DNA of 64,000 nucleotides from Acuticoccus sediminis (GTDB lineage Bacteria; Pseudomonadota; Alphaproteobacteria; Rhizobiales; Amorphaceae), in NCBI RefSeq assembly GCF_003258595.1, contig NZ_QHHQ01000001.1:1116001-1180000 (forward strand), written 5' to 3'. This document shows positions 21,235 through 53,516 of the stretch, in pieces. The notes beneath the pieces were generated by a model. It searched no databases. It saw only the letters and a program-made list of their open reading frames with translations, and had not been told where the DNA came from. The position numbers and the translations under genes were made by a program. Numbering within the stretch: position 1 is the first letter of the stretch; every line of letters begins with the position of its first letter.

Positions 21235-21248
21235 TTGATTCCGGTCAA
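21235..21248. promoter_or_regulatory. FNR/FixK-type box upstream of hemN
   Basis: TTGAT-TCCG-GTCAA, a match to the palindromic TTGA(T/C)-N4-(A/G)TCAA consensus, 85 nt before the hemN GTG. hemN is a classical FNR/FixK target because it replaces the oxygen-dependent HemF when oxygen is low. Confidence 0.8.
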
Positions 21249-21333
21249 CGCAAGGGCGGCACGGCTCGGTTGTGGTGCGCTGCGCCGGGCAGGACGGACT
21301 GATGGTCGCCACTGCGGCAGATTGGAGGAATGT

Positions 21334-22686
21334 GTGGCAGCCGACCTGGCGAACTACATGACGATGGCGGTCCCGCGGTACACGAGCTACCCGACCGCCC
21401 CGCACTTCCACACCGGGATCGACGCGGACACCTACGCGAGCTGGCTCGCCCAGCTCGACGCGGACGCGCCGGTGTCGCTCTACCTGCACGTCCCGTTCTG
21501 CCGGCAGATCTGCTGGTACTGCGGTTGCAACATGAAGCTGGTCGGCGACCGCGAGGAGCCGCTGCGGGACTATGTCGACGTCCTCGACCGCGAGATCGCG
21601 CTCGTCGCCGGTGCGCTGCCCGCCCGGCTGAAGGTCTCCCACATCCACTGGGGCGGCGGCACGCCGACGGTGCTGAGCGGCGACGACCTGGCGAAGGTCA
21701 TGGCGACCCTGCACCGCCATTTCGACGTGCGGGGGGATGCCGAGGTGGCGATCGAGTGCGACCCCCGCACCTTCGACGCGGCGAAGGCGAACGCCCTCGG
21801 CGCCCTCGGCTTCAACCGCGCGAGCTTCGGCGTGCAGGAGTTCGATCCGCGGGTGCAGGCCGCGATCAACCGCATCCAGCCGCCGGCGATGGTGGCGGCG
21901 GCGGTCGAGGCGCTGACGGCGGCCGGGATCGAGCGCATCAACTTCGACCTCATCTACGGCCTTCCGCACCAGACGACGGAGATGCTCCTCGACACCGTGG
22001 CGCAATGCCTGGGGCTCGGGCCGAGCCGGATCGCGCTGTTCGGCTACGCGCACGTCCCCTGGGCGGCCAAGCGGCAGCGGATGATCGCCGCAGAGGCGTT
22101 GCCGGGCGCATCGGAACGGTTCCAGCAGGCGGAGCGTGCCGCCGAGGCGCTCGTCGCCGGCGGAATGGTCGCGGTGGGGATGGACCATTTCGCCTTCCCG
22201 GACGATCCGCTCGCCAAGGCGGTGCGGACCCGCCGCCTGCGGCGCAACTTCCAGGGCTACACGACCGACGAGGCGACGACGCTGATCGGCATGGGCTCCA
22301 CCTCGATCGGCCGCACGCCCTTCGGCTACGTGCAGAACGCCAGCGAGACCGGGGCCTGGGCCCGGGCCATCACGGAGGGGCGCCTCGCCGTCGCCAAGGG
22401 CGTCTGCCTCAGCGAGGACGACGTGCTGCGGGGCCGCGCGATCGAGGAGCTGATGTGCTTCGGCACGCTCGACATGGACGACCTCGCCCGCCGCTTCGAG
22501 GCGCAGCAGGACTGGGCGGACGACGCGCTCGCCTTCCTGCGACCGCTGGAGGCGGACGGGCTCGTCACCATCGACCATGGCCGCGTCACCGTGACGTCTG
22601 CGGGGCGGCCGTTCGTGCGCATCATCGCCAGCTCGTTCGACCGGTACATCACCCGTGGGCCGTGCCGCCACTCGGCGGCGGTATAG
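21334..22686 (+). CDS. hemN: Oxygen-independent coproporphyrinogen III oxidase
   Basis: Radical-SAM enzyme that decarboxylates coproporphyrinogen III to protoporphyrinogen IX without oxygen. 450 residues, the HemN length. The cluster-binding motif C56-x3-C60-x2-C63 is in [12 protein letters not shown], the next Cys being characteristic of true Hem[32 protein letters not shown] and [12 protein letters not shown] follow. The GTG start at 21334 is set by GGAGGA at 21324-21329 and by the conserved N-terminus; an in-frame upstream extension has no homologous look. An FNR/FixK box lies 85 nt upstream, indicating induction at low oxygen. It would supply haem, including for the FixL-like sensor encoded at 54.3-56.3 kb. 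Confidence 0.95.
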
Positions 22687-22940
22687 GCCTGTTCAGGCCC
22701 GGGGGCCGGAGCCGACGTCCGCGCGGCCCGAGCGTCCGTGGCCTATCCGGGACGCCGGGCCGATACCCCTTTGAGACTTGCGCGCGCGGCGGGGTCTGCC
22801 ACCCTGCCCGGTGCGGCGGCTGCGACCAAACGCGTCGCCGGGGCGGGGGGAGGCGGCTCTCCCCACAGGGTTTCGACATCCTCACTTGGAAGAACCGTGC
22901 CCCGGCGCTATTCCGGCGCTCCGCACCGACAGGAGGCACC

Positions 22941-25310
<2,370 letters not shown>

Positions 25311-25347
25311 GCATCGCCGCGCCGCACCACGGCCGGCGGGTGGCCGG

Positions 25348-27490: not shown

Positions 27491-27689
27491 GGAGGCCTCT
27501 TCGTCGTCTTCTGGCCCCGTGGGGGAGGCGCTGCGGGGGGCGGCGCGGCCGAGGCACGCGCCATTAAACCCCAATTGTTAGCGCAACGCCTCTCCGCGTG
27601 CCCTCCCGCTGCGCGAAAGGGACCTATGCAATCGCGATCGGCGGGCTCCGGACGGCATCGCGCCCCGGCCGGCGTTCGCCGCTCGCCTG

Positions 27690-29021: not shown

Positions 29022-29035
29022 TTGACGATTGTCAA
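29022..29035. promoter_or_regulatory. FNR/FixK-type box upstream of the groEL paralog
   Basis: TTGAC-GATT-GTCAA, a perfect palindromic pair of half-sites, 55 nt before the ATG at 29091. It lies in the 291-bp gap between the divergent Old Yellow Enzyme and chaperonin genes; it is 222 nt from the former, so the chaperonin operon is the likely target. Confidence 0.8.
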
Positions 29036-29090
29036 CGCCTCGCAGGCCCATCCCGCCAAGGACTGAAGGGTGGAGTTCGGGGGCCGTCCG

Positions 29091-30713
29091 ATGGCGCACA
29101 AGCAGATCCTGTTCCATTCGGCCGCGCGGGAAAAGGTGCTGCGTGGCGCGACGCAACTCGCCGATGCGGTACGGGTGACGCTCGGCCCCCGCTCCAAGTC
29201 GGTCCTAATCGAGAAGCCCTGGGGCGCGCCGATCGTGTGCAACGACGGGGTGACCATCGCCAAGGAGGTGGACCTCAAGGACCCGGAGGAGAACCTCGGC
29301 GCCCGCATGCTGCGCCAGGCTGCGGAGAAGACCGGCGAGATGGTGGGCGACGGGACCAGCACGTCCACCATCCTCGCCCACGCCATCTTCGCCGAGGGCG
29401 TGCGCAACGTGGTGGCCGGGGCCAGCGCAATCGACATCAAGCGCGGCCTCGACCGCGCCACCCGCCGCGCGGTCGAGGCGCTCCGCGCCCACTCGCGTCC
29501 GGTGAAGTCCCGCCTCGAGAAGACGCAGGTCGCGACGATCTCGGCGCACAACGACCCGACGATCGGCGAGCTGGTGGCGGACGCGATCGAGAAGGTGGGC
29601 GACGAGGGGGTCGTCTCGGTCGAGGAGTCGAAGACCACGGAGACGGTCCTCGAGGTGGTCGAGGGGATGCAGTTCGATCGTGGCTTCCTCTCGCGCTACT
29701 TCGTCACCCAGCCGGAGACGATGGAGGCCGTCCTCGAGGACGCGCTGGTCCTCGTCTCGGACCAGAAGATCGGGGCGCTGCAGGACCTGCTGCCGCTGCT
29801 GGAGGCGGTCGCGAAGCTCGGCCAGCCGCTGCTGCTCATCGCCGAGGATGTGGAGGGGGAGGCGCTCGCCACGCTGATCGTCAACCAGCTGCGCAGCGCG
29901 CTGCGGTGCTGTGCTGTGAAGGCGCCCGGCTTCGGCGACCGCCGCAAGGCGATGCTGCAGGACATCGCCATACTCACCGGCGGCGAGGTGATCTCCCGGG
30001 ATCTCGGCACGAAGCTCGACCAGGTCACCGTCGAGCAGCTCGGCAAGGCCAAGCGCGTCGTCGTCGACAAGGACGCGACGACGATCATCGGCGGCGCCGG
30101 CAAGCGCGCGCTGATCGACGCGCGGATCGTCGAGATCCGCCGCGAGATCGAGGAGACGACCAGCGACTACGACCGGGAAAAACTTCAGGAGCGGCTCGCA
30201 AAGCTCGTCGGCGGCGTCGCCGTCGTTCACGTCGGCGCGCCCTCCGAGTCTGAGATGAAGACACGCAAGGAGGCCCTCGACGACGCGATCAGCGCGACGA
30301 AGGCCGCGGTTGCGGAGGGCATCGTTCCCGGCGGTGGTCTCGCGCTGCTGCGCTGCATCGCCGCCGTCGAGGACGAGGAGGGCCAGTGCGAGGGCGACGA
30401 ACGTACGGGGGTGCAGATCCTGAAGCGCGCCCTCGAGGCTCCCACCCGGCAGATCGCCGAGAACTCGGCGAGCGACGGCGGTGTCGTCGTGGCGCGCATG
30501 CTGGAAGGGCAGGGCAGCCAGGGCTTCGACGCCGGGCGCAAGGTTTACGTCGACCTGCTCGAGGCCGGCATCGTCGACCCCACCAAGGTCGTGCGCGTTG
30601 CGCTCGAGAACGCGGTGTCGGTCGCCAGCATCCTGCTGCTGACCGAAGCGACAATGACGGAAATTCCGGAGGAACACAAAGAGCGGGCGATGCAGCCCGA
30701 ACTGGACCTGTGA
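29091..30713 (+). CDS. GroEL-family chaperonin, divergent paralog without groES
   Basis: 540-residue group I chaperonin. It retains the nucleotide motifs [42 protein letters not shown], the hinge [17 protein letters not shown] and [12 protein letters not shown], so ATPase function is likely. It differs from housekeeping Gro[21 protein letters not shown] replaces the usual start, and the C-terminus ends in an acidic [12 protein letters not shown] without the GGM tail. No groES is adjacent. The ATG at 29091 is chosen for the family start; a GTG at 29070 is possible. chaB follows. With an FNR/FixK box upstream, it is probably a low-oxygen or stress-specific chaperonin with a restricted client set. 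Confidence 0.9.
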
Positions 30714-34844: not shown

Positions 34845-36701
34845 CTACTCCGCGATGACGGCGTTCGAGCCGGAGTCGACGGTGCCCTTCGGCACCGGCT
34901 TGATCGCCTTCTTTAGGTCCACGAGCGTCACCGCGTCGAGCGTCTCCTTCGCGAGCAGGTCCGCCGCCGCCCGGCGCAACAGGTCGCAATTGGCGCGCAG
35001 GATGCCGAGCGCCCGCTCGTAGGCCGCCCCGACGATCGACTGAACCGCGGCGTCGAGCCGCTCGGAGGTCGCGTCGCTGTAGGCGCGCTCCAGGTACGGC
35101 GCCGGGCTGTCGCCCAGCAACGTCGTCCGGTCGCGGTCGTAGCTCACGTGGCCGAGCGTCTCGACCATGCCGTAGCGGGCGGCCATCGAGCGGGCGATGT
35201 CCGTCGCCTTGACGAGGTCGTCGGCCGCGCCGGTCGACCGCTGGCCGAAGATGAGCGCCTCCGCCGCCCGACCGCCGAGCAGGACCGCGATCTTGTTCTC
35301 GAGCTCCTCCCGGGTCATCAGGAACCGGTCCTCGGTCGGGCGCTGGATCGTGTAGCCGAGCGCGCCGACGCCGCGCGGGATGATCGAGACCTTGTGGACC
35401 TCGTCCGTCCCCGGCAGCGCCATCGCCACAAGGGCGTGCCCCATCTCGTGGTGGGCGACGACCTCCCGCTCGCGCGGGTTCAGCACGCGGTTGCGCTTTT
35501 CCAGACCCGCCACGATCCGCTCCACGGCCCGCGTGAAGTCGTCGAGCGAGACCTCCTCCGCCCGGCGCCGCGTCGCGAGCAGCGCCGCCTCGTTGACGAG
35601 GTTCGCGAGGTCCGCCCCGCTGAAGCCGGTGGTCAGCGCGGCGATCTCGTCGATCTTCACGTCGCTCGCCAGCGTGATCTTCTTGAGGTGGACGGCGAGG
35701 ATCTGGATGCGGCCGGCGCGATCCGGCCGGTCGACGAGGATCTGCCGGTCGAAGCGGCCGGCCCGCAGCAGCGCGGGGTCGAGGATCTCCGGCCGGTTCG
35801 TCGCGGCGAGGAGCACGACGCCGACGCTGGGATCGAAGCCGTCGATCTCCGACAACAGCTGGTTGAGCGTCTGCTCGCGCTCGTCGTGGCCGCCGACGAG
35901 CTGCGAGGCCCCGCGCGCCCGCCCGAGCGCGTCGAGCTCGTCGATGAAGATGATCGCCGGGGCCTTGCGCCGGGCCTGGTCGAAGAGGTCGCGCACACGC
36001 GCCGCGCCGACGCCGACGAACATCTCGACGAACTCCGAGCCCGAGATGGAGAAGAACGGCACGCCCGCCTCGCCGGCGACGGCGCGCGCGAGCAGCGTCT
36101 TGCCCGTCCCCGGCGGCCCGACGAGGAGGACGCCCTTCGGGATGTGCGCGCCGAGCCGGCCATAGTCCTGCGGCGCCTTGAGGAACTCGATGATCTCCTT
36201 CAGCTCCTCCTTGGCCTCGTCGACACCCGCGACGTCGTCGAAGCCGACCTTGGTGTCGGTCTCCATGTAGACCCGCGCCGTGCTCTTGCCGACGGACATC
36301 ATCCCGCCGATGCCGCCACCCCCCATGCGGCGCAGCAGGAACATCCACATCCCGAAGAAGAGGAGCGTCGGCAGGACCCACGAGAGGATCGTCGTGAGCA
36401 GCGAGGTGGACTGCCCCGTGAAGGTGACGCCCGTCGCGTCGAGCTTGTCCGCGAGGGCCGGATCGACGCGCGTGGTCGTGAAGGACGACTTGCCGTCGTG
36501 CGGCGTGACGTAGGTGCCGCGGATGATCTCCGGACCGACGGTGACGTCCTTGATGTCACCCCGCTTCAGCTGCTCCTCGAAGGTGCTGTAGGGGATGGCT
36601 TCGACCGTGGTGTGCTCGGTCCAGAGGTTGTGCGCGACCATCGTGCCGAACAGCAGCAGCATGAAGATCCAGGGATCGAACGTCGGGTTGCGCTGAGCCA
36701 T
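34845..36701 (-). CDS. ftsH: FtsH-family ATP-dependent zinc metalloprotease
   Basis: 618-residue inner-membrane AAA protease. Two N-terminal transmembrane helices (about 11-25 and 102-123) flank a periplasmic loop; the AAA domain has Walker A GPPGTGKT (195-202), Walker [13 protein letters not shown] and the second region of homology [19 protein letters not shown]; the zinc site is HEMGH (418-422). It degrades misfolded membrane and short-lived cytoplasmic proteins. The context, away from tilS/folP and in a stress block, suggests an accessory copy. A one-mismatch FNR/FixK box lies 60 nt before its start. Confidence 0.93.
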
Positions 36702-36761: not shown

Positions 36762-36775
36762 CTGACATCCGTCAA
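36762..36775. promoter_or_regulatory. FNR/FixK-like box upstream of ftsH
   Basis: Reads TTGAC-GGAT-GTCAG on the ftsH strand (one mismatch to the palindrome), 60 nt before the ATG at 36701 and between ftsH and the upstream host-attachment gene. Confidence 0.6.
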
Positions 36776-36816: not shown

Positions 36817-37272
36817 TCAGGGCCGCGAGATCAGGTCCGCGACCTGAGCCGTCGGGACGTGGGTGAGGTCGCGGTCGATCTCGGCGACCACCATCGCGCT
36901 GACCCGGGGCGAGAAGTGCGCCCGGAGGCGGCCGAGCATGCGCGGCGGCGATGCGACGACAAGGCGCGGGCTCGCCTCCCGGCCCAGCCGCTCCTCCAGC
37001 ATGTCGGCGACGGTGCGGGCGAACTGGTCCTCGGCGTCCTCGTGCAGGTCGGGCATGGCGAAGCTGCCGCGCATGGTCCTCGACCCCTTGTCGAAATGAC
37101 CGGGCCGATCCGTGCCGAGCTCGGCCGTCCTGCCGTGGTCGTGCGTCATCGTGGTCTCCGCCTGGAGCTCGGGCCGCAGCGCATCGCCCCTGTTGACCAG
37201 CAGGACGGCCCTGGCCCCGTCGGCAAGCAGGATGAAGTCGCCGCCGTGCAAACGAAATTCCGTCCGTTCCAT
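36817..37272 (-). CDS. Host attachment family protein
   Basis: 151 residues of the Host_attach family, first linked to Agrobacterium attachment to plant cells: DFILLADGARAVLLVNRGD, HFDKGSRTMRGSFAMPDLHEDAEDQFARTVADMLEERL, LVVASPPRMLGRLRAHFSP and AEIDRDLTHVPTAQVADLI. The fold is related to the eRF1/Pelota-like bacterial families; a real attachment role is not proven for most members. AGGGAGCGAG precedes the ATG. FNR/FixK-like box 60 nt upstream; divergent from glk. Confidence 0.87.
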   Translation of the reverse strand: MERTEFRLHGGDFILLADGARAVLLVNRGDALRPELQAETTMTHDHGRTAELGTDRPGHFDKGSRTMRGSFAMPDLHEDAEDQFARTVADMLEERLGREASPRLVVASPPRMLGRLRAHFSPRVSAMVVAEIDRDLTHVPTAQVADLISRP

Positions 37273-37332: not shown

Positions 37333-37346
37333 TTGACAATGATCAG
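37333..37346. promoter_or_regulatory. FNR/FixK-like box for the host-attachment gene
   Basis: TTGAC-AATG-ATCAG (one mismatch), 60 nt before the host-attachment start codon at 37272. First of two boxes in the 217-bp divergent gap. Confidence 0.6.
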
Positions 37347-37373: not shown

Positions 37374-37387
37374 TTGACGGATCTCAA
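37374..37387. promoter_or_regulatory. FNR/FixK-like box for glk
   Basis: TTGAC-GGAT-CTCAA (one mismatch), 102 nt before the glucokinase ATG at 37490. Its centre is 41 bp from the neighbouring box, so each divergent promoter may have its own site. Confidence 0.6.
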
Positions 37388-37489: not shown

Positions 37490-38476
37490 ATGCAGCTCAT
37501 TTCCACAAGCCACAGAGCCCTGATCGGCGACATCGGCGGCACGAACGCGAGGTTCGCAGCCTCGGACCTTACCGGCCGGAATCTGACCGACCGCCTGACC
37601 CTGCCGACGCAGGAGTTCGGCTCGATGACCGACCTCCTGGCCGCCTATACGTCGCGCACCGGCGTGCGGGCGGAGGTCGCCTGCCTCGCCGTCGCGGGTC
37701 CGATCACGCACGGTGCGGCGAAGCTGACGAACGCGGCGTGGTCGTTCTCCGAGACCGACGTGTGCCGCGCGACCGGGGTCGTCGGCGCCCGCCTCGTCAA
37801 CGACTTCGAGGCGCTCGCCTACGGCGTGCCGCACCTCGGGGAGCACGACCTCGCGACGGTCAAGCCGGGCACGGCCAATCCGAAGGCGCCGGTGGTCGTG
37901 CTTGGTCCGGGGACCGGCTTCGGCGCGGCGAGCCTCGTGCCGACCGGCAAGGGGTGGATCAGCCTCCCCGGGGAAGGCGGCCACATGACGTTCGGGACCA
38001 CCGCGGACGAGGAGGAGAGCGTCGTCCACGACCACTTCGCGTCGATCTACGAGCACGTCTCGGTCGAGAGGATCCTGTCGGGGAGCGGCATCGAGGCGAT
38101 CGACGGCTGCTTCGGCGGACCGGGACGGTCGGCGGAGGAAATCGTCGAGGAGGCCGCGCGCGGCGACGGCGGGACCGCGTCCCGCACGATCGACTTCTTC
38201 GCCCGCGTCCTCGCGCGCATCGCCGGGGACATCGCCCTCGTCGTCGGTGCGCGGGGCGGCGTCTACCTGGGCGGAGGCATCGCGCCGCGCATCCTCGACG
38301 CCCTCGACAGCGACGCGTTCCGGACGGCCTTCGTGCGCAAGGGGCGCATGTCGGGCTACCTGGCCGACATACCCGTGCGCGTCATCACCATCGATGACGG
38401 CGGCCTGCGCGGCGCGGCCGTCCTCGCCGCCGAGCTCGTTCCCGACGCGGACCGGGTCGGATGGGCCCACACCTGA
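37490..38476 (+). CDS. glk: Glucokinase
   Basis: Phosphorylates glucose to glucose-6-phosphate. 328 residues, the size of proteobacterial Glk, with the phosphate-1 motif LIGDIGGTNARFA, LVNDFEALAYG, the adenosine-region LGPGTGFGAASL, catalytic GEGGH and VYLGGGIAPRIL. GGAGGGGATC precedes the ATG. With pfkB and the acetate operon in the same window, and a candidate FNR/FixK box upstream, it could feed glycolysis under oxygen limitation. Confidence 0.93.
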   Translation: MQLISTSHRALIGDIGGTNARFAASDLTGRNLTDRLTLPTQEFGSMTDLLAAYTSRTGVRAEVACLAVAGPITHGAAKLTNAAWSFSETDVCRATGVVGARLVNDFEALAYGVPHLGEHDLATVKPGTANPKAPVVVLGPGTGFGAASLVPTGKGWISLPGEGGHMTFGTTADEEESVVHDHFASIYEHVSVERILSGSGIEAIDGCFGGPGRSAEEIVEEAARGDGGTASRTIDFFARVLARIAGDIALVVGARGGVYLGGGIAPRILDALDSDAFRTAFVRKGRMSGYLADIPVRVITIDDGGLRGAAVLAAELVPDADRVGWAHT

Positions 38477-39595: not shown

Positions 39596-39911
39596 GGGAC
39601 GCTACAGGGTGCGCAGCCCGCTGGCGCGTGCCGTGTGCGAGGCGGCGGGGCGCGGACGGGCTTGCACCGTTGTCCTCCGGTCGGACCCGCTCCCCTCCGC
39701 GGCGATCGGCGGAGTGACCGCGAGCGATGACTGCGACATCTGTCCCATCCCGACCCCTCCGCGTTCGATGGCCGTGCCGCGATGCCGCAGGCCCCACCTG
39801 AAAACACGACAGGATCGGCCGCCGGTGAGTGGCGCGGTTGACGTGCGTCAATTGCCGGCGGTGCGAAGGAGCGATCGTGGGCCCCGGCGAACTCTCGTTG
39901 GGGAGGCTTCG
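39596..39911. promoter_or_regulatory. Divergent intergenic region ABC-TM / usp
   Basis: 316 bp without a credible gene. It contains the usp FNR/FixK box at 39838-39851, 242 nt from the divergent ABC-TM start. Nothing else recognised. Confidence 0.4.
39838..39851. promoter_or_regulatory. FNR/FixK-type box upstream of usp
   Basis: TTGAC-GTGC-GTCAA, perfect palindrome of half-sites, 60 nt before the usp ATG at 39912. Universal stress genes are known targets of FNR-family regulators in several proteobacteria. Confidence 0.8.
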
Positions 39912-40751
39912 ATGAGCACGACGATCAAGACCATTCTCGTCTATGCCGACCGCAGCGGGGCGTGCGGCCCGTTCCTGATCAAGGCGGCCGCGTTCGCCGC
40001 CGGTCATGACGCGCATCTGGTGGTGCTGGTCGTCGGCCTCGAGCCGACCTCGGCCTACGGCGGGCTCCCCGAGATCCCGTTCAGCAGCTATTTCGCCGAG
40101 GTCACGGCGGTCCACGAGGAGGTGCACCGCACGAGTTCCTGGGCCGACGAGAACCTTTCCGCCACCGGCGTCTCGTTCGACGTGCGCGGTATCGTCGTGC
40201 CTCACGGGACCGAGGGGCGGGCGGTGGCGCGGCACGCCCGCTACGCCGACCTGACGCTGGTCCCGCGCCTCGGCACCGACGGGTCCTGGCACCGTATCGT
40301 CGACGCGGCGCTCTTCGAGAGCGGGCATCCGGTGCTGCTATGCCCGCCGAAAGCCGCACTCGACCCCCTGGGAGAACGGGTGCTGATCGGCTGGGACGCA
40401 CGACCGGAGGCGGCGCGCGCGGTCAGCGATGCGCTGGGCCTCATCTCGGGCGCCAGCGACATCCGCGCGGTGACCGTCTCCTCGCGGACCGGGGCGCACG
40501 CCCACGGGGAGGACCCCGGCACGGATCTCGTCGCATTTCTCGCACGGCACGGCCTCCCCGTGCGGGTGGACGCGATCCCTCGCGACAACCGTTCGGTGGC
40601 CGACGCCATCCTGCGGCACGCGCATTCCATGGGCGCCGACCTCATCGTCTCCGGCGCCTACGGCCATTCGCGACTGAGCGAAATCATCATCGGTGGAGCG
40701 ACCCGGGACCTGATGCGGGTCACCGACCGGCCGCTCTTCATGGCGCACTGA
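39912..40751 (+). CDS. Universal stress protein, tandem-domain UspA family
   Basis: 279 residues made of two Usp-like halves. The C-terminal half has the ATP-binding pattern G-x2-G-x9-G(A/S) in SGAYGHSRLSEIIIGGATRDLM; the N-terminal half (IKTILVYADRSGACGPFLIKAAAFAAG) lacks a clear one. Usp proteins support survival during starvation and oxygen limitation. The ATG at 39912 follows GGGAGG at 39901-39906; upstream in-frame sequence from 39594 is not homologous. A perfect FNR/FixK box is 60 nt upstream. Flavodoxin gene 61 nt downstream, same strand. Confidence 0.9.
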   Translation: MSTTIKTILVYADRSGACGPFLIKAAAFAAGHDAHLVVLVVGLEPTSAYGGLPEIPFSSYFAEVTAVHEEVHRTSSWADENLSATGVSFDVRGIVVPHGTEGRAVARHARYADLTLVPRLGTDGSWHRIVDAALFESGHPVLLCPPKAALDPLGERVLIGWDARPEAARAVSDALGLISGASDIRAVTVSSRTGAHAHGEDPGTDLVAFLARHGLPVRVDAIPRDNRSVADAILRHAHSMGADLIVSGAYGHSRLSEIIIGGATRDLMRVTDRPLFMAH

Positions 40752-43116: not shown

Positions 43117-45516
43117 TCAGGCGCGTGCGCGAAGGCGTGCCGCCGCGCCTTCTGCCTCGGCAACGACCTTCTTGACCGCGAGGAAGCTGTCCGGCGTCAC
43201 AGAGATCGAATCGATCCCCTCGCCGACGAGGAAGTGGGCGAACTCCGGATGGTCGCTGGGCGCCTGCCCGCAGAGGCCGATGACCGCGCCCGCCGCGTGC
43301 GCCTCGCGGATCACGGTGGCGATCATCCAGCGCACCGCGTCATCGTTCTCGTCGAAGAGCGGAGCGAGGATGTCCGAATCGCGGTCGACGCCGAGCGTGA
43401 GCTGCGTCAGGTCGTTGGAGCCGATGGAGAAGCCGTCGAAGCGCGATGCGAAGGCCTTCGCGAGGACCACGTTGGACGGGATCTCGGCCATGACGAACAC
43501 CTGGAGCCCGTCCTCGCCCCGCTTCAGGCCGTTCTCGGCCATCACGCCGAGCACCTTGTCGGCTTCCGTCACCGAACGGCAGAACGGCACCATCACGGCG
43601 ACGTTGGTGAAGCCGAGCCGGTTCCGCAGCATCGCTATGGCCCGGCACTCCAGCGCGAAGGCGGGGCGGTAGGCGTCGTTGGCGTAGCGCGAGGCGCCCC
43701 GGAAGCCGATCATCGGGTTCTCCTCGGCCGGCTCGAACGCCTTGCCGCCCAGGAGGCCGGCATACTCATTGGTCTTGAAGTCGCTGAAACGTACGAGGCA
43801 GCGGTTCGGATGGACCACGGCGGCGATCCGCGCGAGGCTCTGCGCCAGCGTCGTCACGAAGTACTCGGTGCGGTCGGCGTAGCCCTGCGTCAGGGCCTCG
43901 ATCTCGCGCCGGTCGGCCTCGCCCTCGACGGCGTCGAAGTGGACGAGCGCCATCGGGTGCACCCGGATCCGGTTAGCGATGACGAACTCCATCCGCGCGA
44001 GGCCCACGCCGTCCGTCGGCAGCCGCCACCAGCGGAACGCGGCGCCCGGATTGGCGAGGTTCAGCATGACCTTGGTCTTCGTCGCCGGAAGGTCGGTCAG
44101 CGTGAGCGTCTCGGCCGCGACGGTGGCGGCTCCTTCGTAGACGAAGCCGGTGTCGCCTTCCGCGCAGGAGACGGTCACCGTCTGTCCGGAGTGGAGGTGC
44201 TCGGTCGCGTCGCCGGTGCCGACGATCGCCGGCACGCCGAGCTCGCGCGAGACGATGGCGGCGTGGGAGGTGCGCCCGCCATGGTCGGTGACGATCGCGG
44301 CAGCCCGCTTCATCACCGGCACCCAGTCGGGATCGGTCGTACGCGTCACGAGGATCGCGCCGTCGACGAAGCGCGCCTGGTCGGCGACGTCCTCGATCAG
44401 GCAGACCTCGCCGGTGACGACCTGATCGCCGATGGCGAGGCCGGTCGCCAGGGGCCGGCCCTTGTCCTTGATGCGGTAGGTGCGCAGCGCCGTGTCGTGC
44501 TCCTGAGAGCGGACCGTCTCGGGGCGCGCCTGGACGATGTAGAGCCGGCCGTTCGCGCCGTCCCGCCCCCACTCGATGTCCATCGGGCAGCGGTAGTGCT
44601 CCTCGATCGTCACAGCCCAGCGCGCGAGGGTGAGGATGTCCTCGTCGCAGAGCACCATCCGCCGGCGCTCGGCCTTGGCGGTCGGCACCGTCCGGGTGCG
44701 GTCGGTGCCGGTGCCGTAGATCATCTTCACCGTCTTCTCGCCGCAGCGCTTCTCGACGATGGGCACGAGTGTGCCGTCGCTCAGGAACGGCTTGAAGACC
44801 ACGTACTCGTCCGGGTCGACCATGCCCTGGACCACCGTCTCGCCGAGGCCCCAGGCGGCGTTGATGACGACCACGCGGTCGAACCCGCTCTCGGGGTCGA
44901 TGGTGAACATCACGCCCGAGCCGCCGATGTCGGTGCGCACCATGATCTGGACGCCGACGGAGAGGGCGACGGAGAGGTGGTCGAAGCCCTTCGCCTCCCG
45001 GTAGGCGATCGCCCGGTCGGTGAAGAGGGAGGCGAAGCAGCGCCGGACCGCGTCGAGGAGCGCGCCGGGGCCGGACACGTTGAGGAATGTCTCCTGCTGG
45101 CCTGCGAAGCTGGCGTCGGCGAGGTCCTCGGCGGTCGCGCTCGAGCGGACGGCGACCGCAGCGTTCGTCTCGCCGACCCTGCGGCACAGCGCCTCGTAGG
45201 CCTCGACGATCGTCTGGGCGAGCGGATCGGGCCACGGCGCGGCGACGATGGCCTGCCGGATCGCCCTCGCGATGTCGGGCAGCGTGCCCCGCCGGGCGGC
45301 GAGGTCGGCCAGCAGGCTGCGGATGCGCGGCTCGAGTGCGTTTGCGGCGATGAACGCGCGGTAGGCGGTGGAGGACGTCGCGAAGCCTGGCGGCACCTCG
45401 ATGCCTTTCGCGCCGAGCGTCGCGATCATCTCGCCCAGCGAGGCGTTCTTGCCGCCGACCGTGGCGACGTCGCCGCGGCGCGCGTTCTCCAGCCAAACGA
45501 TCGCTTCGTTGCCCAT
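43117..45516 (-). CDS. ppsA: Phosphoenolpyruvate synthase
   Basis: 799 residues, the PpsA length. N-terminal ATP-grasp domain (TVGGKNASLGEMIATL, AVRSSATAEDLADASFAGQQETFLN, GGSGVMFTIDPESGF), phosphohistidine domain with the catalytic His in HGGRTSHAAIVSRELGVPAIVG, and a C-terminal PEP-binding TIM barrel with ECRAIAMLRNRLGF and IGLCGQAPSDHPEFA. It converts pyruvate, ATP and water to PEP, AMP and phosphate. The ATG at 45516 is chosen for GGAGGAAG 5 nt upstream and the MGNEAIVWL start; 42 further in-frame residues are excluded because they run into the promoter. FNR/FixK box 73 nt upstream; PfkB gene upstream on the same strand. Confidence 0.94.
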   Translation of the reverse strand: MGNEAIVWLENARRGDVATVGGKNASLGEMIATLGAKGIEVPPGFATSSTAYRAFIAANALEPRIRSLLADLAARRGTLPDIARAIRQAIVAAPWPDPLAQTIVEAYEALCRRVGETNAAVAVRSSATAEDLADASFAGQQETFLNVSGPGALLDAVRRCFASLFTDRAIAYREAKGFDHLSVALSVGVQIMVRTDIGGSGVMFTIDPESGFDRVVVINAAWGLGETVVQGMVDPDEYVVFKPFLSDGTLVPIVEKRCGEKTVKMIYGTGTDRTRTVPTAKAERRRMVLCDEDILTLARWAVTIEEHYRCPMDIEWGRDGANGRLYIVQARPETVRSQEHDTALRTYRIKDKGRPLATGLAIGDQVVTGEVCLIEDVADQARFVDGAILVTRTTDPDWVPVMKRAAAIVTDHGGRTSHAAIVSRELGVPAIVGTGDATEHLHSGQTVTVSCAEGDTGFVYEGAATVAAETLTLTDLPATKTKVMLNLANPGAAFRWWRLPTDGVGLARMEFVIANRIRVHPMALVHFDAVEGEADRREIEALTQGYADRTEYFVTTLAQSLARIAAVVHPNRCLVRFSDFKTNEYAGLLGGKAFEPAEENPMIGFRGASRYANDAYRPAFALECRAIAMLRNRLGFTNVAVMVPFCRSVTEADKVLGVMAENGLKRGEDGLQVFVMAEIPSNVVLAKAFASRFDGFSIGSNDLTQLTLGVDRDSDILAPLFDENDDAVRWMIATVIREAHAAGAVIGLCGQAPSDHPEFAHFLVGEGIDSISVTPDSFLAVKKVVAEAEGAAARLRARA

Positions 45517-45589: not shown

Positions 45590-45603
45590 TTGACGATCAT
45601 CAA
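45590..45603. promoter_or_regulatory. FNR/FixK-type box upstream of ppsA
   Basis: On the ppsA strand TTGAT-GATC-GTCAA, a full consensus match, 73 nt before the ATG at 45516. It lies between the pfkB stop and ppsA start, so ppsA probably has its own promoter. Confidence 0.8.
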
Positions 45604-45670: not shown

Positions 45671-46618
45671 TCAGGTGAGGTGCGACGCGGGCGTCACCGT
45701 GTGCCACTCGACCTTGTCGAGGAGGCGCCGGGCGTCGGCCGGGTCGCTGAGCTCGGTCCCGGGCGTGAGGAGGGCGGCAGCCCCGGCCGCGGCGCCGTGC
45801 GCGACGGCGTCGGCCAGCGAGGCGCCGTCGTCGAGCGCGGCGAGGAGCGCGCCGAGCATCGAGTCGCCCGCGCCGACGGCGCTGACGAGCGGGACCTCCG
45901 GGGCGTTGTAGGCGATCGCCTCCTCGCCGGTGACGAGGAGCGCGCCGTCCTCCCCGAGCGAGACGAGGATGTTGTCGGCATGACCGTTCGCGATCGCCTC
46001 GCGGGAGAACGCGATCCGCTCGTCGGTGGTCGGGAGGCTTCGCCCGGCCATCCCCTCCAGCTCGCGAAGGTTCGGCTTGATGAGATAGGCGCCCCGTGCG
46101 CCCGCCAGGATCTCCCCCGGGCCGTCGAGCACGAAGCGCGCACCGAGCTGCCGCGCCTCGGCGCAGAGCGAGGCGAGGAAGCCGGGCGAGGTGTCCGCCG
46201 GCAGGCTGCCGCTGTGGACCACGAAGGACGGCCGTCCGAGCGCCGCGACGGCCCGGGCGACCGCCGCCTCCTCGCCGGGGGTGATGGGAGGGCCAGGCAT
46301 CACGAAGCGGAACTGCTCGCCGTCCGACCGCTGCGTCACGGTGAAGCTCTGGCGGGTCTCGCCGGCGATCGGGACGGTCTTCACGTCGAGCCCCTCGGCC
46401 GCGGCGAGGTCGGCCACGCGCTGTCCGGCGAGCCCGCCGGCGGTCAGCACCGCGACGACCGATGCGCCGAAGCGGCGGGCGACGCGCGCGACGTTGATCC
46501 CGCCACCGCCGGCGTTCACCAGCGGCGCGGTGCAGCGCAGCTTGTCCGTCGGGCGCACCGAGTCGACGCTGGTGGCGACATCGAGCGCGGGGTTGGTGGT
46601 GACGGTGACGATCGGCAT
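45671..46618 (-). CDS. pfkB: 6-phosphofructokinase II (PfkB family)
   Basis: 315-residue ribokinase-fold sugar kinase. The N-terminal DKLRCTAPLVNAGGGGINVAR matches E. coli PfkB rather than FruK or ribokinase; GEQFRFVMPGPPITPGEE and the catalytic/anion-hole VGAGDSMLGALLAALDDGASLADAV complete the signature. It phosphorylates fructose-6-phosphate to fructose-1,6-bisphosphate. With glk, ppsA and pta-ackA it forms a glycolysis/fermentation set in this window. FNR/FixK box 106 nt upstream. Confidence 0.92.
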   Translation of the reverse strand: MPIVTVTTNPALDVATSVDSVRPTDKLRCTAPLVNAGGGGINVARVARRFGASVVAVLTAGGLAGQRVADLAAAEGLDVKTVPIAGETRQSFTVTQRSDGEQFRFVMPGPPITPGEEAAVARAVAALGRPSFVVHSGSLPADTSPGFLASLCAEARQLGARFVLDGPGEILAGARGAYLIKPNLRELEGMAGRSLPTTDERIAFSREAIANGHADNILVSLGEDGALLVTGEEAIAYNAPEVPLVSAVGAGDSMLGALLAALDDGASLADAVAHGAAAGAAALLTPGTELSDPADARRLLDKVEWHTVTPASHLT

Positions 46619-46956: not shown

Positions 46957-48024
46957 GTGAGGCGCAGGCGCTGGGTCATCCTCCTCGTCCTCGCCGGGGT
47001 CGCCGCCGCGGCGTACGCCGTCTGGTCGGGGCGCAACGGAAACGGGCTGCCGGAGGGCTTCGCCGCCGCCAACGGGCGGCTCGAGGCGGTGGAGATCGAC
47101 GTCGCGACCAAAGGCTCCGGACGCGTCGAGGCGCTCCTCGTGGACGAGGGACAGCGTGTCGACGAGGGGCAGGAGCTGGCGCGGATGGACGTCGCGGTGC
47201 TGCTGGCGCAGAAGCGCGAGGCCGAGGCCAATCTGCACCGCGCCGAGATCAACGTCGACACCGCCGGCGACCTGATCCGCCAGCAGGAGGCCGAGCGCCG
47301 CGCGGCGGATGCCACCGTCGAGCAGCGCAAGGCCGAAGTGGCGGTGGCGGAGAAGATCTTCGACCGCGTCAAGGAGCTCGTGGCGCGGGGGACCGCGCCG
47401 ATCGAGCGGCTCGACAACGCGACCGCGACCCTCGACGGTGCCCGCGCCGCGCTCGCGGCGGCTGAGGCCGGAGTCGCTGCCGCCGAGGCCGCCGTGGGCT
47501 ACGCCCGGTCCGAGGAGGTCGCCGCGCGCGCCGGCGTCGACGCCGCCAAGGCGACGCTGGAGCGCATCAAGGCGGACATCGACGACACGAACCTGCGCTC
47601 GCCGCGGGAGGGACGCGTCCAGTATATCGTCGCCCGGCCGGGGGAAGTGCTGGCTTCCGGCGGCGTGATCCTCAACCTCGTCGACCTCACCGACGTCTAC
47701 ATGACGTTCTTCCTGCCGACGGCGGACGCCGGCCGCGTCGCGCTGGGAACCGACGTGCGCCTCGTGCTCGACGCCGCGCCGCAGTACGTGATCCCCGCCG
47801 CGGTGAGCTACGTCGCCGACGTCGCCCAGTTCACGCCGAAGACGGTCGAGACCGCGGACGAACGCGCGAAGCTGATGTTCCGCATCAAGGCTGCCATCCC
47901 GCAGGACCTCCTGAAGAAGTACATCGCCTACGTGAAGACCGGCCTGCCGGGCACGGCCTACGTCCGCCTCGATCCCGCCACGCCCTGGCCCGAGCAGCTC
48001 GAGGTGAAGCTGCCCGATGAGTGA
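46957..48024 (+). CDS. HlyD-family membrane fusion protein (YhiI-like)
   Basis: 355-residue periplasmic adaptor of an ABC exporter. A single N-terminal membrane anchor ([18 protein letters not shown]), a biotinyl-lipoyl half-motif ([39 protein letters not shown]), a long alpha-hairpin coiled coil (about 80-205), then the second lipoyl half ([28 protein letters not shown]). The GTG start at 46957 has a weak ribosome site. The 3' end overlaps the RbbA-like gene by 8 nt. This is the yhiI-rbbA-yhhJ gene order of E. coli. Confidence 0.9.
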
Positions 48025-50767: not shown

Positions 50768-51882
50768 ACGGCGCGGCGACGATCTGGCGCCTCGGGATCA
50801 AGGAGCTGCGCAGCCTCGGCCGCGACCGGGTGCTCCTCGCGCTGGTGCTCTACTCGTTCAGTCTCGGCATCTACGCCGCCGCCGAGCATATTCCCGAGAC
50901 GCTGCACCGTGCGCCGATCGCCATCGTCGACGAGGACCGCTCGCAGCTCTCGACGCGGATCGCCGCCGCGTTCTACCCGCCCCACTTCATGCCGCCGTCC
51001 GAGATCACGGCGGCGGAGATGGACCGCCGTCTCGACGCCGGCGACGTCACCTTCGCGCTCGTCCTGCCGGTCGGGCTGCAGCGCGACGTGCTGCGGGGCG
51101 AGCGCCCGGCGGTGCAGCTCAACGTCGACGCCACCCGCGTCTCGCAGGCCTTCACCGGGGCAGGCTACATCGCCGAGATCGTCAGCGGAGAGGTCGCCGC
51201 GTTCGTCGCGCGCTACCGCTCAGTCGCCGAGGCTCCCGCGGAGCTGACGATGCGGGCCCGGTACAACCCGCTCCTCACCTTCTCCTGGTTCGGCGCAGTG
51301 ATGGAACTCGTCAACAACGTCACGCTGCTGTCCATCATCCTCACCGGCGCGGCGCTCATCCGCGAGCGCGAGCACGGGACCATCGAGCACCTCCTCGTCA
51401 TGCCCGTGACGCCGCTCCAGATCATGCTCGGGAAGGTGTGGGCGATGGGGGCGGTGGTGCTCGCGGCATCGGCCGTCTCGATCGCGCTGGTCGTCCGTAT
51501 GGTGATCGGGATGCCGGTGGAGGGGTCGGTCGCCCTCTTCCTCGCGGGGGCGGGGCTGCACCTCTTCGCGACGACGTCGCTCGGCATCTTCCTCGCGACG
51601 CTCGCCCGGTCGATGCCGCAGTTCGGGCTCCTGACGATCCTCGTCATCCTGCCGCTGGAGATGCTGTCAGGCGGCCAGACCCCGCGCGAGAACATGCCCG
51701 AGGCGATCCAGGCCATCATGTCCCTGGCGCCGACCACCCACTTCGTGACGCTGTCGCAGGCCATCCTGTTCCGTGGCGCGGGAATCGAGGTGGTGTGGCC
51801 GCAGTTCCTGGCGCTCCTCGCCATAGGCACTGCGCTCTTCGCCGCGGCCCTCGCCCGCTTCCGCGTCGCCATCGCGCAGTAG
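50764..51882 (+). CDS. ABC-2 type permease (YhhJ-like)
   Basis: 372-residue permease that would pair with the RbbA-like protein. One N-terminal helix ([22 protein letters not shown]), a periplasmic domain with the ABC-2 family [19 protein letters not shown], then five helices from about residue 170 ([70 protein letters not shown]). ATGA overlap with the upstream gene. Last gene of the three-gene exporter operon; the FixK-like gene is convergent 31 nt later. Substrate unknown. Confidence 0.92.
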
Positions 51883-51913
51883 CGGGGGTGGGCCGGCGGG
51901 GAGGGGGCCGGCG

Positions 51914-52594
51914 TCAGGCGCAGAACCGCCCGCGCGCCGCGCCGTCGCCGTCGTCCTGCGCCAGCGCCTGGAGCGCCGCGCGGTCGCGGATCGTCACGGT
52001 GTCGCTGCGCGGCAGGGCGATGATGCCCAGCGTCCTGAGGCGCGTGATCGCCCGGCTCACGGTCTCGATGGTGAGGCCGAGATAGTCGGCCATCTCGCTG
52101 CGGCTGATCGGCACCATGAAGGTCTCGGCGCCGCCCGAGGAGCGCGACGAAATGTCGAGGAAGCACGCCGCGACACGGCCGATCGCCGTGCGGCTGCCGA
52201 TCACCATGAGCCGGTCGCTGAGACGCGACTGCTCCAGCGTCAGCGCCTCCAGCAGCCGCCGCGCGGTCACCGGGCTCTCGTCGATGGCCCGTTCCACGGC
52301 CGCGCGCGCGATTCGCCGCACGACGGTCGGGCGCACCGCGATGGCGCTGAAGCTGTAGTTCTCCTCGTAGCCGACGCCGACATATTCGCCCTTGAACCGC
52401 AGGTCCTGGATGATCCGGCACCCGTCGATCCCGGTCCGGTAGATCACGACGACGCCGTTCACGATCATGAACATCGCCTCGGCGGGGGCGCCTTCGTGAA
52501 AAATGTGCTCGTGGCTGCCGACCCGGGTCAGAGGCGTCGCATGAGAAGAAAAGGCGCTGTGACTGGCGGGATGTGTGGAAAGTGAAGCGATCAT
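51914..52594 (-). CDS. Crp/Fnr-family regulator, FixK-like (no Fe-S cysteines)
   Basis: 226 residues: cyclic-nucleotide-binding-like sensor (about 20-110), dimerisation helix (RRLLEALTLEQSRLSDRLMVIG) and a Crp winged helix (SRSEMADYLGLTIETVSRAITRLRTLGII). The recognition helix has E177-x2-S180-R181, the residues FNR and FixK use to read TTGAY half-sites. Unlike FNR there is no N-terminal cysteine cluster; only C59, C144 and C225 exist, so it cannot bind a [4Fe-4S] cluster in the FNR manner. The ATG at 52594 is chosen for GAGGAGG upstream. It is the best candidate to bind the TTGA(T/C)-N4-(A/G)TCAA boxes in this window. Divergent from the response regulator gene. Confidence 0.9.
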   Translation of the reverse strand: MIASLSTHPASHSAFSSHATPLTRVGSHEHIFHEGAPAEAMFMIVNGVVVIYRTGIDGCRIIQDLRFKGEYVGVGYEENYSFSAIAVRPTVVRRIARAAVERAIDESPVTARRLLEALTLEQSRLSDRLMVIGSRTAIGRVAACFLDISSRSSGGAETFMVPISRSEMADYLGLTIETVSRAITRLRTLGIIALPRSDTVTIRDRAALQALAQDDGDGAARGRFCA

Positions 52595-52736
52595 GACTGC
52601 CTCCTCGAACCAGCCGGGAAACCGGCTCTTTCGTTGAAGCAGATCGACATCGCAGGGTTTTGCCTCCAATGTGTCAGTCGCGTTGCTGGCTGATGTTAAT
52701 GAACAAGGGTTCTTTCAGGGTAGGCGGACGTTCGTC

Positions 52737-53489
52737 ATGCACACCGCGTGCATTCTGATTGTTGATGACGACCCGAAGGTCCGCTCCCTGATGCGGCGGT
52801 CTCTGGAGCCGGAGGGCTTCGAGGTCGACGAAGCCGCCGACGAGCCGGACCTGCTGGCACGGATGGCCGAGCGCCGCTACGACCTCATCACCCTGGATCT
52901 CGGTCTTCGCGGTACGGACGGCCTCGAGATCGCGCGCCGCCTCCGACGGACCAGCGACACGCCGATCATCATGGTCACCGGCAAGGGCGACGTCATCGAC
53001 CGCGTCGTCGGACTGGAGGTCGGCGCCGACGACTATCTCGTCAAACCGTTCCATGTCCGCGAGTTCGTCGCGCGGGTGAGGACCGTGCTGCGCCGGACGA
53101 TCAAGCCGGCGGAACCGGCCGAGGAGACGGCGAATGAACCCGGCGATCCGGGCTACGTCATCGGCGAGCTGAAACTGCTCGTCGCCGACCGCGTGCTGGT
53201 CGGGTCGGACGGTGAGCCGATTTCGCTGACCGAGGGGGAGTTCGCCATCCTCGCCGCCCTCGCGCAGGCGCAGGGGCGTGTGCTGACGCGCGAGGCGCTG
53301 ATCCTCGCCCGCGGGGACGACGTCGACGCGTTCGACCGCGCGATCGACAGCACCGTCGCGCGGCTGCGCAAGAAGCTGCCGCCCGACACGATCGCCACCG
53401 TCCGGCAGGTCGGCTACAAGATCGGCGTTCCCACCGAACCTGCGACGTTCACGAAATCCCCCAGCGGCGTCCGCCACATCCTGCTCTGA
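52737..53489 (+). CDS. OmpR-family response regulator
   Basis: 250 residues. Receiver domain with ILIVDDDPKVRSLMRRSL acidic pocket, phospho-acceptor D54 (LITLDLGLRGTDG), TGKGDV Thr and VKPFHVREFVARV Lys; then an OmpR-type winged helix (ISLTEGEFAILAALAQAQGRVLTREALILA ... IDSTVARLRKKLPPDTIATVRQVGYKIG). No gene-internal kinase pair; the FixL-like hybrid kinase two genes away is the nearest candidate partner, although classical FixL signals to FixJ, a NarL/FixJ-type regulator. The start was set at the ATG at 52737, just before the first receiver strand; a GTG at 52671 is possible. Confidence 0.9.
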   Translation: MHTACILIVDDDPKVRSLMRRSLEPEGFEVDEAADEPDLLARMAERRYDLITLDLGLRGTDGLEIARRLRRTSDTPIIMVTGKGDVIDRVVGLEVGADDYLVKPFHVREFVARVRTVLRRTIKPAEPAEETANEPGDPGYVIGELKLLVADRVLVGSDGEPISLTEGEFAILAALAQAQGRVLTREALILARGDDVDAFDRAIDSTVARLRKKLPPDTIATVRQVGYKIGVPTEPATFTKSPSGVRHILL

Positions 53490-53502
53490 CGCCCCGCACC
53501 GT

Positions 53503-53516
53503 TTGACGGTTGTCAA
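53503..53516. promoter_or_regulatory. FNR/FixK-type box upstream of the BON gene
   Basis: TTGAC-GGTT-GTCAA, perfect palindrome of half-sites, 13 nt after the response-regulator stop and 73 nt before the BON ATG at 53590. Confidence 0.8.

What the first reader, a model, noticed from the sequence alone, without database searches (positions are those of the whole stretch)
21235..53516. Probable FNR/FixK-type low-oxygen regulon with nine binding boxes
Six perfect matches to TTGA(T/C)-N4-(A/G)TCAA (21235, 29022, 39838, 45590, 46725, 53503) and three one-mismatch versions (36762, 37333, 37374) were found. All are intergenic. Eight lie 55-106 nt before the start of hemN, groEL, ftsH, the host-attachment gene, glk, usp, ppsA and the BON gene; the ninth, at 46725, is 106 nt from pfkB and 218 nt from hlyD. 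Assuming independent bases at about 70% GC, a hand estimate gives about 0.02 perfect matches expected in 64 kb, so six is far above chance. hemN and usp are typical FNR/FixK targets. The remaining genes (chaperonin, FtsH, glk, pfkB, ppsA, BON) would define a fermentation-and-stress regulon centred on this block.
Basis: partly seen in the sequence, partly recalled or inferred. Interest (0 to 1): 0.85.

Follow-up and report, generated by a model that had tools for sequence, protein, structure and literature searches.

The report
Low-oxygen FixK regulon with oxygen sensor
The nine short DNA boxes are very probably docking sites for a FixK/FNR-type low-oxygen switch whose likely oxygen sensor sits beside it, a known kind of bacterial control system seen here with its own variations.

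Summary
In detail: six perfect and three one-mismatch TTGAY-N4-RTCAA sites, all intergenic once the ppsA start is set by relatives; shuffles give 0.04 perfect sites. The genome has 27 perfect sites against 4 for the reversed pattern, 25 not inside genes, including those before ccoN and ccoG. In relatives, orthologs of perfect-box genes are boxed in 13 of 13 cases, other neighbours in 2 of 23. Of the one-mismatch sites only that of baeRF ("host attachment") has support; ftsH (0 of 2) and glk (0 of 1) do not.

The regulator at 51914 is FixK-type without Fe-S cysteines. Beside it lie an OmpR-type response regulator and a hybrid FixL. This trio stands with usp and BON genes on two of three rhizobial plasmids viewed. 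FixK, hFixL and ppsA orthologs share the same 4 of 10 family genomes; hemN is boxed in 6 of 6, so probably under the separate Fe-S Fnr too. Bradyrhizobium induces the same kinds of genes in microoxia. Variant features: no rhizobial K-box, another conserved element before fixK, a TTGAC-N4-GTCAA bias.

The parts
21235..21248 (.). perfect box before hemN
   Evidence: box starts 63-109 nt before the first matched hemN codon in 6 of 6 genomes with hemN
29022..29035 (.). perfect box before groEL (divergent OYE-type oxidoreductase 223 nt away)
   Evidence: box before groEL in G001 and G002
36762..36775 (.). one-mismatch box before ftsH; not found at orthologs
   Evidence: 0 of 2 orthologs
37333..37346 (.). 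one-mismatch box between baeRF and glk
   Evidence: baeRF orthologs boxed 2 of 2
37374..37387 (.). one-mismatch box between baeRF and glk; glk ortholog without a box
   Evidence: 0 of 1 for glk
39838..39851 (.). perfect box before usp
   Evidence: 3 of 3 homologs boxed; the one in G001 is only 43% identical
45590..45603 (.). perfect box before ppsA
   Evidence: 3 of 3 relatives boxed; unboxed paralog in the same genome
46725..46738 (.). perfect box between pfkB and hlyD
   Evidence: hlyD homolog boxed 1 of 1, a partial gene; no pfkB ortholog in the stretches fetched
53503..53516 (.). perfect box before BON gene
   Evidence: 2 of 2 orthologs boxed
51914..52594 (-). FixK-type Crp/Fnr regulator, no N-terminal Fe-S cysteines, recognition helix I-E-T-V-S-R
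   Evidence: Caulobacter FixK model 157 bits, below its cut-off of 300; FixK2 4i2o 1.5e-25
52647..52673 (-). conserved element CAC-N6-GRCAAA-N4-TGCGAYGT upstream of fixK, candidate operator of the response regulator
   Evidence: pattern made from 4 fixK upstream regions; no second exact copy in those genomes and none exact in the other 6
52737..53489 (+). OmpR-type response regulator, FxkR-like by position
   Evidence: 43-49% in the 25 best plasmid hits listed
54293..56149 (-). hybrid FixL-type histidine kinase (haem-type PAS, HisKA, HATPase, REC)
   Evidence: FixL 1d06 1.3e-33; 49-56% in the 25 best plasmid hits listed
53590..54240 (+). BON-domain protein
21334..22686 (+). hemN, oxygen-independent coproporphyrinogen III oxidase
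   Evidence: TIGR00538 over cut-off
29091..30713 (+). groEL, no groES called beside it
34845..36701 (-). ftsH
36817..37272 (-). baeRF family 12 / 'host attachment' protein
37490..38476 (+). glucokinase
39912..40751 (+). universal stress protein
43117..45516 (-). ppsA-type PEP synthase
45671..46618 (-). PfkB-family hexose kinase
46957..48024 (+). HlyD-type adaptor, followed by ABC exporter genes (48017-51882)

Best explanation
The boxes are operators of FNR-class regulators in a low-oxygen regulon of an alphaproteobacterium. The block is served chiefly by its own FixK (51914-52594). FixK has no Fe-S cluster motif, so it is probably made on demand: a hybrid FixL with a haem PAS (54293-56149) senses falling oxygen, the OmpR-type response regulator beside it (52737-53489) is activated and switches on fixK, perhaps at the conserved element 52647-52673, and FixK then activates usp, ppsA, BON, groEL, baeRF and pfkB/hlyD, mostly from TTGAC-N4-GTCAA-like boxes. 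A second, Fe-S-type Fnr encoded next to ccoNOPQ probably runs cco, and hemN alone or together with FixK. Shown: the boxes, their excess, intergenic placement, presence at orthologs, the protein classes, and joint presence of FixK, hFixL and ppsA. Inferred: binding, activation, the phosphorelay, the operator's role, and the division of labour.
For: Six perfect sites against 0.04 in shuffles; 27 in the genome against 4 for the reversed pattern. Of the 21 sites outside the window, 19 are not inside called genes; P about 4e-10 at the 25% non-coding fraction my caller gives there. Targets outside the window include classical ones: ccoN, ccoG, a di-haem peroxidase, PhaC, usp. Orthologs: 13 of 13 of perfect-box genes boxed against 2 of 23 other neighbours; ppsA 4 of 4 genomes with the unboxed paralog as control; hemN 6 of 6. 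FixK at 57-68%, hFixL at 70-73% and ppsA at 80-82% occur in the same 3 of 9 relatives. TTGAC-N4-GTCAA counts are 13, 11, 5, 5 with fixK and 1, 2, 2, 2, 3, 4 without. FixL histidine and arginine line up. The RR-fixK-hfixL trio lies on Sinorhizobium and Ensifer plasmids with usp (perfect box) and BON (one-mismatch box) genes. Microoxic induction of USP, PEP synthase, glucokinase, PfkB kinase and host-attachment protein in B. diazoefficiens (PMC6515984).
Against: No expression or binding data for this organism. The ftsH and glk boxes are not found at orthologs. Several sites outside the window lie by genes that fit no low-oxygen regulon (exonuclease, transglycosylase, MFS transporter, sulfatase/RTX proteins), and some lie far from any start. 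The published FxkR target, the K-box, is absent before fixK here. FixK here does not group with the rhizobial hFixL-linked FixK proteins in the tree. Which of the two FNR-class proteins binds which box is not shown; Tsoy 2016 found no group-specific change among DNA-contacting residues, and the pfkB/hlyD box is of mixed type. The family comparison is of 10 genomes that share ancestry, so the counts are not independent; the TTGAC pattern's own reversed control reaches 6 in G003. A Roseomonas plasmid with ppsA-FixK-usp has no such boxes before ppsA or usp. B. diazoefficiens Table 2 marks the host-attachment protein as a putative direct FixK2 target, but not PEP synthase, glucokinase or the PfkB kinase.
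Confidence: 0.85

Rival explanations
1. All boxes, those in the block included, are run by the Fe-S Fnr beside cco; the FixK at 51914 plays little part in them.
For: Fnr has the same recognition helix I-E-T-V-S-R, and hemN is boxed also in 3 genomes without the FixK ortholog.
Against: TTGAC-N4-GTCAA sites are more frequent in the 4 genomes with FixK; boxes of usp, ppsA, BON and groEL are C/G-type in 27 of 30 half-sites against 7 of 24 at cco and hemN; the ppsA ortholog occurs only in genomes with FixK.
Confidence: 0.1
2. The boxes respond to nitric oxide or another signal through a Dnr/Nnr-type regulator, not to oxygen.
For: Dnr/Nnr regulators are thought to use similar boxes (recalled, from no call); DNR is the second-best solved relative of FixK.
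Against: FixK2 is the best solved relative; the neighbouring sensor is FixL-like; among the 20 site-adjacent genes scanned outside the window none was a denitrification gene, though this was not a whole-genome search for such genes.
Confidence: 0.04
3. The boxes are a chance or compositional feature of AT-richer intergenic DNA.
For: Intergenic DNA of a genome with about 71% GC in this window may be richer in AT; I did not measure it apart.
Against: The reversed pattern, of the same composition, gives 4 against 27, and boxes are found at orthologous genes after rearrangement.
Confidence: 0.01

Closest known systems
hFixL-FxkR-FixK cascade of Rhizobium leguminosarum and R. etli (PMC7888657, passages read; PMC4999443, outline and sections 9, 15 and 24)
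   Same: Hybrid FixL, a response regulator that induces fixK, FixK without Fe-S cluster, anaeroboxes at targets, a separate Fe-S FnrN acting on the same kind of box. That FxkR is of the OmpR type is recalled, not read in these passages
   Different: No GTTACA-N4-GTTACA K-box before fixK; another conserved element instead; FixK in a separate clade; targets near fixK are stress and fermentation genes, while cco lies elsewhere beside fnr
RR-fixK-hfixL modules with usp and BON genes on Sinorhizobium and Ensifer plasmids (L153, L154)
   Same: Same three regulators side by side, with usp, BON and (in L153) acetate-CoA ligase/GNAT and alcohol dehydrogenase genes; perfect box before a usp and one-mismatch box before BON in both
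   Different: Perfect K-box present; no ppsA, pfkB, groEL, ftsH or baeRF annotated in the stretches seen. A third locus viewed (L191) has fixK-hfixL beside cco and hemN, without usp or BON
Microoxic regulon of Bradyrhizobium diazoefficiens (PMC6515984, section 18 part 1 and passages)
   Same: USP, PEP synthase, glucokinase, PfkB kinase, host-attachment protein, PhaC2, HemN and cbb3 oxidase rise in microoxia; several are putative direct FixK2 targets
   Different: FixK2 there is induced by FixLJ (start of the abstract of PMC9104804); PEP synthase, glucokinase and the PfkB kinase are not marked as direct FixK2 targets; groEL3 there is a NifA target
Low-oxygen-activated (lxa) locus of Burkholderia cenocepacia (PMC6127331 and PMC3759415, passages; original Sass 2013 paper not held)
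   Same: Clustered USPs, BON protein and phosphofructokinase, linked to low oxygen, with a proposed FNR/FixK-type regulator
   Different: A betaproteobacterium; regulator not beside the locus by its gene number; boxes there not checked by me

Membership tests
FNR/FixK (anaerobox) regulon | TTGAY-N4-RTCAA boxes above chance and outside genes | tested here: met
FNR/FixK (anaerobox) regulon | Classical targets boxed (cco, hemN) | tested here: met
FNR/FixK (anaerobox) regulon | Oxygen-dependent expression through these boxes | not testable with these tools
   needs transcripts and mutants
FixK (51914) | Crp/Fnr fold with FNR-class helix and no N-terminal Fe-S cysteines | tested here: met
   (by sequence; no structure predicted)
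FixK (51914) | NCBIfam FixK model NF050806 over its cut-off | tested here: not met
   157 bits against a cut-off of 300; the model is of Caulobacter FixK
hFixL | Haem PAS with FixL His and Arg, kinase core, C-terminal receiver | tested here: met
   which His and Arg matter is recalled
hFixL | Haem binding and oxygen-regulated kinase activity | not testable with these tools
   needs purified protein
FxkR cascade | OmpR-type regulator beside fixK and hfixL | tested here: met
FxkR cascade | K-box GTTACA-N4-GTTACA before fixK | tested here: not met
   the same pattern gives perfect K-boxes in L153 and L154
FxkR cascade | FixK in the same clade as the hFixL-linked rhizobial FixK | tested here: not met
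   16 proteins, some cut short at the N-terminus by my gene caller; support moderate
FixLJ-FixK cascade | FixJ (LuxR-type) regulator beside fixL | tested here: not met
   the neighbouring regulator has an OmpR-type output domain; the rest of the genome was not searched for FixJ

The most novel reading that the evidence does not exclude
In this lineage two FNR-class regulators split the low-oxygen response. The Fe-S Fnr reads TTGAT-N4-ATCAA-like boxes at respiratory genes. A separate FixK, switched on by hybrid FixL and an OmpR-type regulator through a new single-copy operator (CAC-N6-GRCAAA-N4-TGCGAYGT), reads TTGAC-N4-GTCAA boxes at fermentation, chaperone and stress genes. The regulator cassette and some of its targets are gained and lost together.
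Probability: 0.4. Interest if true: 0.5.

Novelty: new variant of a known kind. Interest (0 to 1): 0.4.

Why it matters
It places the hybrid-FixL/OmpR-regulator/FixK cascade, best known from rhizobial symbiosis, in a genome where the genes near fixK are fermentation and stress genes. It also gives a natural comparison: 4 family genomes with FixK and hFixL and 6 without. That makes it testable whether FixK and Fnr prefer different versions of one box, a question that Tsoy 2016 left open after finding no group-specific change in the DNA-contacting residues. For genome annotation it supplies a regulatory link between scattered genes of vague name (usp, BON, baeRF).

Tried and rejected

K-box of rhizobial FxkR: no site in window 52401-52800 with up to 4 of 12 mismatches, and only four 3-mismatch hits elsewhere in the window; in the three relatives the best hits before fixK have 4 or 5 mismatches.

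Genome scan with the HAD-ATPase protein 41367-43097 to find the block in named genomes: 40 loci, many of them Cyanobacteria and other phyla. I did not analyse them for boxes.

Naming the organism: alpha_tmRNA hit shows an alphaproteobacterium (of 14 control genomes only Caulobacter has it); the 16S search returned nothing; order not determined.

Roseomonas plasmid ppsA-FixK-usp: looked like the same block, but no perfect or one-mismatch box before ppsA or usp. The stretches around FixK-like proteins of Azospirillum and S. numidicum show no RR-fixK-hfixL trio as annotated and no perfect box.

A -10 element at fixed distance behind the boxes was looked for by eye and is not clear.

Counts that leave rows out: the 13 of 13 and 2 of 23 leave out the one-mismatch genes (baeRF 2 of 2, ftsH 0 of 2, glk 0 of 1) and the ABC membrane gene that shares the usp box (0 of 1). 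They cover only stretches I fetched, most of which were chosen because boxes or fixK lie there. The usp homolog in G001 is only 43% identical. The G002 groEL case counts after reading its start by hand; itself scored it as unboxed. The half-site comparison (27 of 30 against 7 of 24) uses boxes from genomes that share ancestry; it includes groEL, usp, ppsA and BON, and leaves out baeRF and the two pfkB/hlyD boxes, which are of mixed type (1 of 2 half-sites each). 'Not inside' allows a small overlap: the site at C1:38155 overlaps the 3' end of a called gene by 4 bases. The output was cut in the middle, so part of its loci was read only through.
Full report
Observation. Shuffles of the window give 0.04 perfect sites on average and never more than 1, against 6 seen. 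In the whole genome (7,759,911 bases, 44 contigs) there are 27 perfect sites, against 4 for the reversed pattern. Six of the 27 fall in this window where 0.22 would be expected from even spacing, and no random placement out of 20,000 gave six in 32.3 kb. With a codon-usage gene caller written here, 5 of the 6 perfect window sites touch no called gene; the sixth overlaps by 11 bases a ppsA start that relatives do not support. Of the other 21, 19 are not inside called genes; the two inside are at C3:786538 and C23:8140. The caller finds 75% coding in the 17 stretches outside the window, which gives P of about 4e-10 for 19 or more of 21.

What the sites elsewhere control. Sites lie 61 nt before ccoN and 136 nt before ccoG, the former directly behind a gene for an Fe-S-type Fnr (N-terminal C-x2-C-x7-C). 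Others lie before a di-haem cytochrome c peroxidase (57 nt), a PhaC-type polymerase (206), a usp gene (56), an alcohol dehydrogenase (215), an acetate-CoA ligase/GNAT protein (55), a phosphoribosyl pyrophosphate synthetase-like protein (57), a potassium transporter (213) and two sulfatase/RTX proteins (103, 104). Still others lie by an exonuclease, a transglycosylase, an MFS transporter, a DUF1003 protein and an FG-GAP/RTX protein, which are not expected targets. The Pfam scans covered 20 genes at or near the 21 sites outside the window; 2 of these 20 had no family at the threshold used, and the genes at 6 sites were not scanned (one of these sites lies before a Crp-family gene read).

The regulators. 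The protein at 51914 has the I-E-T-V-S-R recognition helix of FNR-class regulators and no Fe-S cysteines at its N-terminus. Its best solved relative is FixK2 (4i2o, 1.5e-25). It scores best with the Caulobacter FixK model, though under that model's cut-off (157 against 300 bits). Of 14 HTH_Crp_2 matches over the cut-off in the genome, 12 are Crp-type proteins that I read. Two of the 12 have this helix: the FixK here and the Fe-S Fnr beside cco. The helix reading rests on recalled FNR/CRP knowledge.

The likely sensor. The kinase at 54293-56149 has a PAS domain that matches FixL structures (1d06, 1.3e-33), with the FixL histidine and arginine in line, followed by the kinase core and a C-terminal receiver. 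That is a hybrid FixL. Which histidine and arginine matter is recalled. Between it and fixK lie the BON gene and an OmpR-type response regulator. In R. leguminosarum hFixL signals through FxkR to induce fixK, FixK then acts on anaeroboxes, and a separate FnrN takes over near anoxia (PMC7888657, passages). On Sinorhizobium and Ensifer plasmids the three genes stand side by side, with usp (perfect box) and BON (one-mismatch box) genes close by. A third rhizobial locus viewed has fixK-hfixL beside cco and hemN instead. The 25 best kinase hits on plasmids are 49-56% identical and the 25 best response-regulator hits 43-49%; OmpR-type regulators are many, so the latter is weak evidence alone.

Comparison within the family. 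Ten genomes are held. The FixK ortholog (57-68%) is in G001, G002 and G004 besides the window's own. The hFixL ortholog (70-73%) and ppsA (80-82%) are in exactly the same four; four of the other six have a kinase of 38-43% identity (E limit 1e-80), none has a ppsA match at E 1e-40. TTGAC-N4-GTCAA is commoner in those four (13, 11, 5, 5; reversed control 3, 0, 2, 1) than in the other six (1, 2, 2, 2, 3, 4; reversed control 6, 3, 0, 1, 0, 2), while TTGAT-N4-ATCAA is not (5, 10, 4, 2 against 3, 3, 8, 3, 4, 3). Boxes of usp, ppsA, BON and groEL are C/G-type in 27 of 30 half-sites, those of ccoN, ccoG and hemN in 7 of 24. The sequences share ancestry, so the P values are only a guide. hemN is boxed in 6 of 6 genomes that have it at E 1e-60, three of them without the FixK ortholog, so hemN belongs at least to Fnr.

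Boxes at orthologs. In the stretches held from G001, G002 and G004, orthologs of genes with a perfect box have one in 13 of 13 cases: hemN 2, groEL 2, usp 3, ppsA 3, hlyD 1, BON 2. Other neighbours have one in 2 of 23. Most of these stretches were chosen because they hold boxes or fixK. The ppsA and hemN tests were whole-genome searches and do not have that bias; the window genome's second ppsA-like gene, 62% identical, has no box. The baeRF genes are boxed (2 of 2); ftsH (0 of 2) and glk (0 of 1) are not. Gene order differs between the species; in G001 groEL lies about 65 kb from fixK and is still boxed.

How fixK itself is switched on. No box and no K-box lies before fixK, although the same pattern finds perfect K-boxes in the two rhizobial loci. 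Aligning the fixK upstream regions of the four species shows a conserved stretch. A pattern made from its core, CAC-N6-GRCAAA-N4-TGCGAYGT, matches these four by construction. What is informative is that it has no second copy in those genomes, even with one mismatch, and no exact copy in the other six, where two one-mismatch copies turn up; the reversed control gives one match in all ten. It is the candidate operator of the response regulator; that it is bound is inference, and plain relatedness of the four upstream regions could explain part of the conservation.

Known or new. In B. diazoefficiens, microoxia raises USPs, PEP synthase (blr4655), glucokinase (blr4658), a PfkB-type kinase (blr4659), a host-attachment protein, PhaC2, HemN and the cbb3 oxidase. 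The host-attachment protein, PhaC2, one of three USPs in the core list, HemN1/HemN2 and cbb3 subunits are marked as putative direct FixK2 targets; PEP synthase, glucokinase and the PfkB-type kinase are not (PMC6515984, section 18 part 1 and passages). The lxa locus of B. cenocepacia has USPs, a BON protein and phosphofructokinase (PMC6127331, passages). So the gene set and the logic are known. In the listings I saw no paper that ties this regulator trio to this gene set with a non-K-box element before fixK; I read only parts of the papers cited. PMC4999443 (sections 9, 15, 24) reports the hFixL-FxkR-FixKf cascade in R. etli, R. leguminosarum and S. meliloti among 50 genomes. The tree of 16 proteins puts the FixK of this family apart from the rhizobial hFixL-linked ones, with moderate support and some rows cut short. 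I therefore call it a new variant of a known kind.

Limits. No expression or binding data exist here. The organism is an unnamed alphaproteobacterium; its order is not known. One genome family of ten members underlies the comparison.

Noticed in passing
window 41367-43097: A HAD-IIB phosphatase fused to a P-loop ATPase domain, with relatives of 26-60% identity in Cyanobacteria, planctomycetes, Chloroflexi, Rokubacteria and others (40 loci).
   Followed up: partly
L049 5001-5014 and L050 5001-5014 (G000 C2:589484 and C2:862935): Two sulfatase/RTX-repeat paralogs each have a perfect box 103-104 nt upstream, an unusual target for an FNR-class regulator.
   Followed up: no
L139 8184-9743 (G001 C24): G001 has a second FixK (48-51%) divergent from a BON gene with a perfect TTGAT-N4-ATCAA box between them.
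   Followed up: no
window 30834-30962: A 42-aa reading frame directly after groEL has a relative after groEL in G001 and G002 (59-61%); no groES was called beside this groEL.
   Followed up: no
L190 5064-9723: A Roseomonas marmotae plasmid carries ppsA, a FixK-like gene, usp and, further on, hsp20, but without TTGAY-N4-RTCAA boxes before ppsA or usp, so its regulator may read another site.
   Followed up: partly
window 17465-17600: A PAP2-domain protein begins with a long run of L-G-S repeats.
   Followed up: no
L143 about 8015-9638 (G002 C2): The groEL gene of G002 reads on in two frames, a frameshift or an assembly error.
   Followed up: no
own genome G000: No 16S rRNA match was returned for the window's genome, though the alpha-type tmRNA is found.
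   Followed up: no
window 11-2961: Three genes in a row look like phosphate acyltransferase, acetate kinase and enoyl-ACP reductase by eye (recalled, no family search); they have no box with up to one mismatch although they would fit a fermentation regulon.
   Followed up: no
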